64,000 nucleotides of DNA from Isoetes taiwanensis. Lineage: Eukaryota > Streptophyta > Lycopodiopsida > Isoetales > Isoetaceae. A program made the translations under genes and the position numbers. The stretch's first letter is position 1, and the number at the start of each line of letters is the position of its first letter. Of this stretch, positions 44,152-45,858 are shown one piece after another. The notes beneath the pieces were generated by a model that was given only the letters and a program-made list of their open reading frames with translations, made no database searches and had not been told where the DNA came from. The DNA lies in contig JAJEKV010000057.1 in NCBI GenBank assembly GCA_021234155.1, positions 6,541,821-6,605,820 of the forward strand. The letters are read 5' to 3'.

Positions 44152-45858
44152 ATGCCGCGCTTTAAGCTCACTGTTGACCTAAAGAAGATGAATGTGTACC
44201 AGCTTTATAGCGTACTTATAGATCATCTCGCAGACGATAGTGACATGGTCGACCTTGTGTTAGACCTTTTGGTTACCCATTTTGCTGAGAACCGTAGGAT
44301 CCCATATCCTATCTTCCATTTCTCGGAGCGGTTCCTTATGAAGTTGAATGCGGCCAATGAGTTTTATACTCTACTAGAGCAGCCTGATCAAGCCTATGCC
44401 ATCGTTAAGTTCTACCCGCTGGCGAGTCCAGATGAGGACCCCATAGAGCTTGCCCAAATAGAAGCCCAGGGGGTTATGGACCTTGCAAGGATAGAGGACC
44501 TGCAACAAATTGCCAGTGGTATCCCAGAGGAGAGGGCCGCGCGGTTCTACTACTTAGGGAGGGGCCATGTCCTCATGTACTTAGATCACTATAACCTTCC
44601 CCCTTTTTATTGGGATGGGGCTTCCAACACTTTTGTATTCGAGACTGTCCCACCTGATTTTACACAGGATCGGATGGACATTATCGAGGCCGACATGCAA
44701 GCTCGACCAGGCCGCTACCATGCTGAGATAGCACGGTGAACCCAGGTGCGCCAGGAACGTGAGGCCAGAGAAGCTGAGAGAGAGGCTATTCGTAGAGCCG
44801 AGGAGGCTGCCCAAATGGAGCAGAACGAAGTTCGGAATATAGTTCAAGAAGTGGAAGAGCGGGTGGCTAGACGCAAGAGGAAGTACACTAAGCACACGAA
44901 GGGAGGTGTCCATTACAAAACCAGGTTACAACAGGATGCCGAGATTGGGAAGAATACGGCCGCAGATCGACGTGAGAGAATAGTAGAGAAGGCCAAGCAC
45001 CCCTCAACCGCTGGTAAGACTGTACCATTGATCGCACCGCCCGCTGCCGGGAAGCCCCATAGGTTTCACTGTGCATTGTAGCGCTATGCGAAATAATAAA
45101 AATACGAAAGACTACAGAGTTCCCGATACGGCTATCTTTCCAAATGTCTTGTCCGAGAAATTACCCAAGAATTCAAGACGGACATGAGGTTCCAAGCTTT
45201 TGCCTTACTTGCTCTACAGGAGGCTGCCGAAGCCTATCTTATCGAAATTTTGGGTGATGCCAGGGATAGGTTCAATACGCTGCACGTTTTATACGGAATA
45301 CGTATGAATTGTATGATACGGCACATATTTGCCGTATAAAACGTAAAAAATACGGCAAAAAAAAAATTCCGGCGTCGGAAGATTTTCGCGACAGACGTGA
45401 AAACAACGCGGAAAGCCGTCTGTGAAATTTTTTTTCAGACGCCGGAAACAAAAAAAATCACAGATTTTTTTTTCACAGACGCTGAAAAGTTCACAGACGC
45501 TGGAATTCTTTCGATCGCGACGCAAAAATACTTTCGCGACGCTAAAGATGAAGGTTCACAGACGCCTTTTTTTTTTTTTTTTTGCGACGCTGGTTTTCAT
45601 CGCTTTCAGACGCCGAAAAACTTTTATGCGACGCCATCGGCTTTCACAGACGCTGAAATTTTTTTTTTCCGGCCGGCGAGGTTTAAATACGTTAAATACG
45701 TATTTTATTAAAAAATATGCATTTTTTGACTTTATACGTCAGGAATTTGAATTTTGTACGTACAGAACCTATCCCTGGGTGATGCGAACCTATGTGCCAT
45801 CCACGCGAAGCGGGTGACTATTATGCCCAAGGATGTTCAACTAGTTGCAGAAGATTAA
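44152..45858 (+). pseudogene. B2 leader ORF ending in a histone H3 domain
   Basis: One frame runs from ATG 44152 (MPRFKLTVDLKKMNVYQLYS). An unknown domain of about 196 residues ends at a TGA (44737-44739). A charged Arg/Glu helix follows, then a tail with STAGK and APPAAGKPHRF (45007-45066), where H3 has STGGK and KPHRF. Three stops fall in the alpha-N region (45079 and a TAATAA). The histone fold then reads LVREITQEFKTDMRFQ, LALQEAAEAYLIEI and, after a MITE (45261-45777), NLCAIHAKRVTIMPKDVQL, ending LVAED at 45858 in place of the usual LARRIRGERA. The frame is restored exactly if the MITE and one target-site copy are left out. It resembles canonical H3, with several replacements. Confidence 0.8.
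45261..45777. mobile_element. hAT-type MITE inserted in the H3 domain
   Basis: 13-bp terminal inverted repeats CAGGGATAGGTTC. A perfect 8-bp target duplication GGTGATGC lies at 45253-45260 and 45778-45785. The 517-bp inside has no transposase. It is built of irregular repeats of TCACAGACGCTGAAA and GCGACGC types (45365-45670). An 8-bp duplication with a CAGGG tip is typical of hAT elements. Confidence 0.88.

What the first reader, a model, noticed from the sequence alone, without database searches (positions are those of the whole stretch)
44152..45858. A retrotransposon leader ORF ends in a histone H3 domain
Between a Ty3-type LTR/PBS and gag, one frame joins an unknown N-terminal domain, a charged helix, an H3-like tail (STAGK, KPHRF) and an H3 fold (LVREITQEFKTDMRFQ, ALQEAAEAYL, NLCAIHAKRVTIMPKD). 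The fold keeps the same frame as the N-terminal domain, apart from in-frame stops and a later MITE. A histone as a built-in retrotransposon component would be new to me. It could package cDNA, coat the integration complex or steer insertion.
Basis: partly seen in the sequence, partly recalled or inferred. Interest (0 to 1): 0.92.

Follow-up and report, generated by a model that had tools for sequence, protein, structure and literature searches.

The report
Histone H3 built into a retrotransposon
In a quillwort genome, a large family of virus-like jumping genes carries its own fused histone H3, kept intact by selection in many copies; this suggests that a retrotransposon uses a piece of the host's DNA-packaging machinery as one of its own parts.

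Summary
The window copy is a dead, nested member of a family of Ty3-type chromodomain LTR retrotransposons; the host is very likely Isoetes taiwanensis. ORF1, the first ORF after LTR and primer-binding site, encodes an orphan ~190-aa domain, a charged linker, a basic tail-like block and an H3 histone-fold core, upstream of ORF2, a small third ORF and gag-pol. Of 104 scored copies at least 95 carry H3 sequence; 29 span ORF1 in one frame without a stop in the matched stretches. The H3 motif HAKRVTIMPKD followed by YT occurs at 913 places, reversed control 0. Lineages A and B share the layout although their pre-H3 parts are only 31-35% identical. Their H3 cores form one clade apart from host H3, with dN/dS 0.045 (A) and 0.025 (B), against 0.068 for reverse transcriptase in A. 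Function is inferred: a tail-swapped H3 that enters chromatin with host H4, most likely to counter silencing or tether the element. My paper and protein searches found no comparable retroelement.

The parts
39530..40682 (+). 5' LTR, first part (starts TGTGACG)
   Evidence: 88% match to the LTR of copy L010, continued after a nested insert
40683..43016 (.). nested insert inside the 5' LTR, with CACTAGAGTTGTC / GACAACTCTAGTG ends
   Evidence: the LTR match is interrupted here; end sequences read
43017..43413 (+). 5' LTR, second part (ends CGTCACA)
43415..43426 (+). primer-binding site TGGTATCAGAGC (initiator-Met tRNA type; type recalled)
   Evidence: same string just after the LTR in 14 of 20 fetched copies
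44152..44736 (+). ORF1 N-terminal orphan domain (195 aa), ended here by TGA 44737-44739
   Evidence: (150 scored matches)
44740..44994 (+). ORF1 charged linker and basic block
44995..45066 (+). H3 tail-like segment, STAGK to GKPHRF
45067..45147 (+). degraded H3 region (stops and a frameshift in this copy)
45148..45260 (+). H3 core, first half, LVREI to LGDA
   Evidence: Pfam Histone 1.2e-9
45261..45777 (.). 517-bp hAT-type MITE, TIR CAGGGATAGGTTC, TSD GGTGATGC
45778..45858 (+). H3 core, second half, and stop
   Evidence: Pfam Histone 3.6e-9
45859..52820 (.). nested insertion(s), including a LINE-type element on the minus strand
   Evidence: (RVT_1, zf-RVT)
53006..54272 (+). ORF2 remnant of the same element (orphan)
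   Evidence: 84% and 73% to ORF2 of L012
54567..55193 (+). gag remnant; the match to the family stops at about 55193
   Evidence: 63% and 90% to gag of L027

Best explanation
Shown: this is ORF1 of a Ty3/chromovirus-type LTR retrotransposon family whose leader protein is a fusion of an element-specific domain to a histone H3 core. The sequences fit a single uptake from a canonical H3 before lineages A and B split, followed by purifying selection about as strong as that on reverse transcriptase. Inferred mechanism: the H3 core pairs with host H4 and is built into nucleosomes. The normal tail with its methylatable lysines is replaced by the element's own domain and a basic block, so chromatin that carries ORF1 protein cannot be marked at the usual H3 tail sites and displays an element domain instead. 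The most likely use is to keep element chromatin from being silenced through histone-tail methylation. How likely: built-in, selected component 0.95; pairs with H4 or enters nucleosomes about 0.7; anti-silencing as the main use about 0.4.
For: Layout repeated in two lineages: LTR-PBS-ORF1(H3)-ORF2-ORF C-gag-pol with chromodomain for A, and ORF1(H3)-ORF2-ORF C-RT-IN-chromodomain for B. Insertions have 5-bp target duplications (L027 GTGGC, L023 GGTCC) and a polypurine tract. H3 core dN/dS: 0.045 in A (236 of 276 pairs usable), 0.025 in B (21 of 21), 0.054 for A-B (28 of 168 usable, the rest saturated); RT in A 0.068 (78 pairs). A and B H3 cores lie on one side of a branch with 100/97 support. 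pS to host H3 is 0.87-0.91, so no recent capture or conversion. In 30 of 30 element cores positions 86, 87, 105 and 107 are changed, 89 in 29 of 30, while most positions that in the nucleosome contact DNA, H4 or the partner H3 (roles recalled) keep the host residue. The tail before RKPHR has no ARKS in 20 of 20 A copies, and K36 is R in the 26 copies scanned. A fusion at the tail should not hinder nucleosome assembly (recalled). The pre-H3 part and ORF2 differ far more between A and B (31-35% and 38-45% identical) than RT does (82-95% in the longest stretch per copy), as expected of parts that face the host or each other rather than Gag/Pol.
Against: No protein, expression or chromatin data. 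The N-terminal domain has no known relative and its models are poor. Some core positions near DNA or H4 are changed: 41 Y to F in 21 of 30, 64 K to R in all 23 A, 60 L to P in 16 of 23 A, 101-104 in most A, 125 Q to A in all 7 B. Two of six B copies have an ARKS motif further upstream in the linker, perhaps still methylatable. The element already has a chromodomain, so tethering is about as natural. Within A the N-terminal domain is itself under purifying selection (0.122), so no arms-race signal was found. Four less-selected A copies give 0.354 for the H3 core (6 pairs).
Confidence: 0.4

Rival explanations
1. Tether: ORF1 protein sits in host nucleosomes through its H3 core, and its N-terminal domain holds the pre-integration complex or Gag, steering insertion or keeping the complex in the nucleus.
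For: A chromatin-binding part fused to an element-specific domain is the layout of a tether; most H3 core residues are retained; ORF1 lies on the same strand of the same element as gag-pol.
Against: The integrase already ends in a chromodomain. RT is 82-95% identical between A and B while the pre-H3 part is 31-35%, odd for a partner of conserved Gag/Pol proteins.
Confidence: 0.3
2. Decoy: ORF1 protein captures host H4 or histone chaperones and disturbs host chromatin assembly, which indirectly relieves silencing.
For: Residues 86-89, part of the patch that separates H3 variants for chaperones (recalled), are altered: 86 and 87 in 30 of 30, 89 in 29 of 30; so are 105 and 107 in 30 of 30.
Against: Most DNA-contact residues (recalled) are kept too, which a decoy would not need.
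Confidence: 0.13
3. Packaging: ORF1 protein compacts element cDNA or coats the particle's nucleic acid, with or without host H4.
For: A basic block next to the H3 core is conserved in A and B; some giant viruses organise their genomes with histones (PMC12297534, start of abstract seen).
Against: No H4, H2A or H2B partner was seen in ORF2 or ORF C: no Pfam match above cut-off and no convincing PDB match.
Confidence: 0.1
4. Passive cargo: a host H3 was captured and merely hitch-hikes, as in the fungal hAT elements.
For: H3 capture by transposons is known (PMC6710886, passages seen). Four A copies taken by similarity rather than by open frame give an H3-core dN/dS of 0.354 (6 pairs), showing decay after insertion; L008 has no H3 match.
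Against: Separate clade with fixed changes, very low dN/dS, same frame kept in two lineages, and at least 95 of 104 copies with H3 sequence.
Confidence: 0.03

Closest known systems
Ty3/Metaviridae chromoviruses of plants (chromodomain integrase; surveyed in non-seed plants in PMC2864245, passages seen)
   Same: LTRs with TG...CA ends, 5-bp target duplication, PBS, polypurine tract, gag-PR-RT-RNase H-IN and chromodomain
   Different: Extra ORFs before gag, the first a histone H3 fusion. Clade within chromoviruses not determined here.
Histone H3 transduplicated by hAT DNA transposons in Dothideomycete fungi (PMC6710886, abstract and passages seen)
   Same: A mobile element multiplies an H3 coding sequence, to hundreds of copies in P. 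fijiensis
   Different: DNA transposon with H3 as cargo. In P. fijiensis the 784 H3-like copies are inactivated by RIP, the original gene excepted; in P. tritici-repentis 23 of 26 look coding but group closest to the original H3. Here H3 is fused to an element domain, forms an old clade and is under purifying selection.
Viral histones: bracovirus H4 and histones of giant DNA viruses (PMC9145170 passages; PMC5423620 and PMC12297534 starts of abstracts)
   Same: A selfish genome uses a histone; bracovirus H4 joins host nucleosomes and acts through its N-terminal tail
   Different: DNA viruses, not retroelements. 'Retrotransposon' and 'retrovirus' have 0 hits in the main text of the review PMC9145170.
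LTR retrotransposons with extra captured ORFs in bdelloid rotifers (PMC5408684, abstract seen)
   Same: Accessory ORFs of foreign origin, shared modularly among elements
   Different: Those ORFs (ORF3) are envelope-like, esterase or exonuclease genes; the abstract names no histone.
Plant CENH3
   Same: Histone H3 core behind a non-canonical N-terminal tail
   Different: The 98-99-residue core aligns to host H3 without insertion (one 2-residue deletion, L016) and complete cores are 78-90% identical, unlike the divergent, longer-loop CENH3 (CENH3 features recalled).

Membership tests
Ty3/chromovirus LTR retrotransposon | LTR pair with TG...CA ends and 5-bp target-site duplication | tested here: met
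   L027 LTRs 96.5% identical over 1647 columns, TSD GTGGC; L023 LTRs 92.2%, TSD GGTCC. Of six copies with a downstream piece, five gave an LTR match and L013 gave none
Ty3/chromovirus LTR retrotransposon | PBS after the 5' LTR and polypurine tract before the 3' LTR | tested here: met
   TGGTATCAGAGC exact in 14 of 20 copies; AAGGAGGGGAGAA before the 3' LTR in the three copies whose 3' LTR start was read
Ty3/chromovirus LTR retrotransposon | Domain order capsid-CCHC-protease-RT-RNase H-integrase | tested here: met
   Pfam on L027 and L032: Ty3_capsid, Retrotrans_gag, zf-CCHC (below cut-off), RVP_2, RVT_1, RT_RNaseH, Integrase_H2C2, rve
Ty3/chromovirus LTR retrotransposon | Chromodomain at the integrase C-terminus | tested here: met
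   PF00385 1.6e-10 in L023 (lineage A) and 4.9e-9 in L044 (lineage B); these two copies only were tested
Core histone H3 | Histone fold with H3-specific core sequence | tested here: met
   PF00125 2.6e-42 in L027; the 60 best PDB matches of 177 are H3, best 7.2e-50
Core histone H3 | Canonical N-terminal tail with K4, K9, K27 in ARTKQTARKS / AARKSAP context | tested here: not met
   Tail replaced; no ARKS in 20 of 20 A copies, an upstream ARKS in 2 of 6 B copies; R at position 36 in the 26 scanned
Core histone H3 | Assembles with H4 into nucleosomes | not testable with these tools
   Sequence only; most contact residues (recalled) retained, some changed
CENH3 | Longer loop 1 and divergent core (recalled) | tested here: not met
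   No insertion relative to host H3 in the cores aligned
Passive gene capture by a transposon | Captured copy close to the host gene and free to decay | tested here: not met
   pS to host 0.87-0.91, own clade, dN/dS 0.025-0.054 between copies; individual dead copies do decay (0.354 in four)
TE-encoded anti-silencing factor | Loss of silencing at element copies when expressed | not testable with these tools
   No expression or chromatin data

The most novel reading that the evidence does not exclude
A retrotransposon lineage builds part of its own chromatin: it encodes a tail-swapped histone H3 that enters nucleosomes with host H4, so that element DNA carries nucleosomes which the plant cannot methylate at the usual H3 tail sites and which display an element protein instead.
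Probability: 0.33. Interest if true: 0.97.

Novelty: new variant of a known kind. Interest (0 to 1): 0.88.

Why it matters
Histones are the substrate on which plants write the marks that silence transposons. An element that has carried its own H3 for a long time, with the core kept and the tail replaced, would show a parasite taking over that substrate itself. It turns a broad question, whether transposons can alter the histones that silence them, into a test on one defined protein. It also means that this genome has on the order of a thousand H3-coding stretches that are not ordinary host H3 genes (913 exact motif matches), which matters for anyone annotating histones or mapping H3 peptides in this plant.

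Tried and rejected
Full-length ORF1 against 5.8 billion proteins: swamped by ordinary H3 and H3 gene-cluster predictions; of 4857 hits the 120 listed cover at most 47% of the query. Its residues 1-250: no hit among 2811 candidates. A+B alignment of the pre-H3 part: no hit among the 7997 candidates scored, no convincing PDB match (best E 0.026), none in viral contigs. That search needs shared 5-residue words, so distant relatives could be missed. Other plant genomes were not available, so spread beyond this species is untested. AlphaFold models of ORF1 (mean pLDDT 45.8) and of the N-terminal domain (51.9) are too poor to search with, so no fold search was run. Profile comparison of the pre-H3 part with ORF2, ORF C and gag: no similarity. 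PDB profiles for ORF2 and ORF C: nothing convincing. A one-off pseudogene was considered and rejected. Recent gene conversion from host H3 was considered and rejected. The count of host-type H3 motifs did not complete.

Literature: nine searches (one search was for the host genome) listed no retrotransposon-encoded histone. I saw listings and, for six papers, passages or an abstract. The library holds open-licence PMC papers only, so this is not proof of absence.

Full report
WHAT IS IN THE WINDOW. The frame from 44152 is as described. It codes for a 195-aa domain without a Pfam match above cut-off, a charged linker, a tail-like STAGK...KPHRF stretch and two halves of an H3 core (Pfam Histone 1.2e-9 and 3.6e-9), separated by a 517-bp hAT-type MITE. 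This copy is dead: TGA at 44737, stops and a frameshift in 45067-45147, the MITE, a nested insert in its 5' LTR and a large nested insertion at 45859-52820, after which ORF2 and gag resume.

THE HOST. The window lies in a genome of 1,658,258,908 bases in 1110 contigs. The Isoetes taiwanensis paper gives 1658.30 Mb in 204 scaffolds plus 909 contigs, 1113 records in all (PMC8566536, passages seen). The small difference in record number is unexplained; the match is an inference, but a close one. 'Histone' has no occurrence in that paper's main text.

IT IS A FAMILY, NOT AN ACCIDENT. The N-terminal domain alone gives 150 scored matches out of 2841 first-look candidates. The full-length ORF1 query gave 165 matches from 104 scored candidates out of 10,780; the 150 listed rows collapse to 104 copies. 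Of these, 103 show N-terminal sequence and 88 show H3 sequence (to query residue 367 or beyond) in the listed rows. Of the other 16, five were fetched and carry H3 (L016, L023, L025, L027, L028), one appears with H3 (C1019) and one has the H3 motif at the expected distance (C501), so at least 95 of 104 have it. By the table alone, 29 of 104 run from residue 17 or earlier to residue 388 or later in one frame without a stop in the matched stretches; the others have stops, gaps or partial matches, and many copies are clearly dead. One of the eight best N-terminal hits (L008) has no H3 match in its fetched stretch. A degenerate DNA pattern for HAKRVTIMPKD followed by YT, which leaves out host genes of the type read (they have I there), occurs exactly at 913 places (459 + 454) against 0 for the reversed control.

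ANATOMY. Twenty 10-kb stretches were fetched, chosen because their frames were long, so the share of intact frames among them says nothing about the family. All 20 have ORF1 running through to the end of the H3 core, with a 2-residue deletion in L016; L025 lacks the usual first ATG. Exact TGGTATCAGAGC lies upstream at the expected place in 14 of 20; RT sequence of more than 80 codons is found within the slice in 13 of 20. In L027 the element runs about 13.2 kb: LTR (1.64 kb, pair 96.5% identical, ends TGTGACG...CGTCACA), PBS, ORF1, ORF2, gag-protease-RT-RNase H, integrase, polypurine tract, LTR, with target duplication GTGGC; L023 has GGTCC and 92.2% identical LTRs. Of six copies with a downstream piece, five gave an LTR match and L013 none. 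The chromodomain was confirmed in one A copy (L023, 1.6e-10) and one B copy (L044, 4.9e-9). A third ORF of about 163 aa lies between ORF2 and gag in many copies. In L013, L023 and L025 gag follows ORF1 directly.

A SECOND, DEEPLY DIVERGED LINEAGE. A search with canonical H3 found 15 host-type places (96-98% identical to the query) and 135 less similar ones (71-86%) among 150 scored of 9064 candidates. Of the 135, 51 lie in open frames of at least 400 codons; I fetched seven of them. Six show lineage B with the same layout; the seventh, L042, is a truncated or rearranged copy. B and A pre-H3 parts are 31-35% identical. One B element continues with ORF2, ORF C, RT, integrase and a chromodomain; gag was not seen in the fetched piece. 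A-B identity is 82-95% in the longest RT stretch per copy (some shorter pieces lie at 74% or at 96%), 61-79% in ORF C and 38-45% in ORF2. RT dS is 0.9-1.7, while ORF C is saturated in 8 of 13 and ORF2 in 15 of 17 comparisons. The 5' half is thus older than, or recombined against, the pol half.

SELECTION. Pairwise Nei-Gojobori estimates (my script) on the 20 copies: N-terminal domain 0.122 (143 of 190 pairs usable), linker 0.187 (166), tail 0.187 (138), H3 core 0.040 (176). With four less-selected copies added (L001, L004, L005, L006): A 0.045 (236 of 276), B 0.025 (21 of 21), A-B 0.054 (28 of 168). The four less-selected copies alone give 0.354 (6 pairs), as expected when dead copies decay; the window copy's shifted stretch is among them. 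Benchmarks within A: RT 0.068, ORF C 0.109, ORF2 0.137. Comparisons with host H3 are saturated at synonymous sites (pS 0.87-0.91).

ORIGIN AND CHANGES. On a tree of 56 H3 cores, A (23) and B (7) together are one side of a branch (100/97), apart from the host pair and 24 other H3s, themselves only those found. With 97 columns most finer forks are unresolved and the bootstrap had not quite settled. Changed in 30 of 30 element cores: position 86 to A or T, 87 to F, 105 to S or G, 107 to A; position 89 in 29 of 30. Further changes: 41 Y to F in 21 of 30, 64 K to R in 23 of 23 A, 60 L to P in 16 of 23 A, 101-104 in most A, 125 Q to A in 7 of 7 B. Core identity to host is 78-87% (A, complete cores) and 87-90% (B). 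The tail keeps a K14-like GGKS or AGAKT and RKPHR but not the K9/K27 context: no ARKS in 20 of 20 A copies, while 2 of 6 B copies have one upstream in the linker. From knowledge of the nucleosome (not from a call), most residues that touch DNA, H4 and the second H3 are among those unchanged, and 86-90 is the patch that histone chaperones use to tell H3 variants apart.

HOW IT PROBABLY WORKS. Shown: a fused, conserved, multi-copy ORF inside elements with all the usual LTR-retrotransposon parts. Inferred: H4 pairing and entry into nucleosomes (about 0.7). What this serves is open. I rank escape from tail-methylation silencing first (0.4), because the tail is exactly what was replaced and because the attached domain and ORF2 differ between lineages much more than pol does. 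A tether for the integration complex comes next (0.3), then decoy and packaging.

COMPARISON. Fungal hAT elements that carry H3 (PMC6710886) show that transposons can multiply H3, but as cargo; bracovirus H4 and giant-virus histones show viral use of histones. Nine paper searches of an open-licence library listed no retroelement with a histone. I therefore call it a new variant of a known kind (a chromovirus with accessory ORFs) that carries a component without precedent as far as these searches reach.

LIMITS. One species, assembly sequence only, no expression data, copies chosen for open frames in the main set, N-terminal domain of unknown fold, and clade within chromoviruses not placed.

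Noticed in passing
45261-45777: 517-bp hAT-type MITE inserted inside the H3 core of the window copy, TIR CAGGGATAGGTTC, TSD GGTGATGC.
   Followed up: yes
40683-43016: Insert in the 5' LTR with CACTA-type ends (CACTAGAGTTGTC / GACAACTCTAGTG) (class recalled).
   Followed up: partly
11271-15899 (minus strand): A related chromovirus with a chromodomain: gag 54% and pol 75-81% identical over the best stretches to the H3 family (other pieces 31-43%); ORF1 and ORF2 match the window only at the H3 element and ORF C nowhere. It may be an H3-less sister.
   Followed up: partly
L012:4113-5501 (-), L024:3327-3815 (-): Two further orphan ORFs (ORF2 about 463 aa, ORF C about 163 aa) between ORF1 and gag, without convincing Pfam or PDB relatives, under purifying selection (0.137 and 0.109).
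   Followed up: partly
L044 versus L009-L028: Gradient of divergence along the element between lineages A and B: ORF1 pre-H3 part and ORF2 very different, pol much alike; suggests recombination between elements.
   Followed up: partly
L016, L017, L020-L025 ORF1 linker: Variable number of NVDQQGDQ-like repeats in the linker of lineage A.
   Followed up: no
L038, L043 linker: An ARKS motif, the context of H3 K9 and K27, in a basic stretch well upstream of the H3 core in two of six lineage B copies.
   Followed up: no
L035, L036: Two host H3 genes with identical proteins but core pS 0.55 between them; host H3 combines S87 with L90.
   Followed up: no
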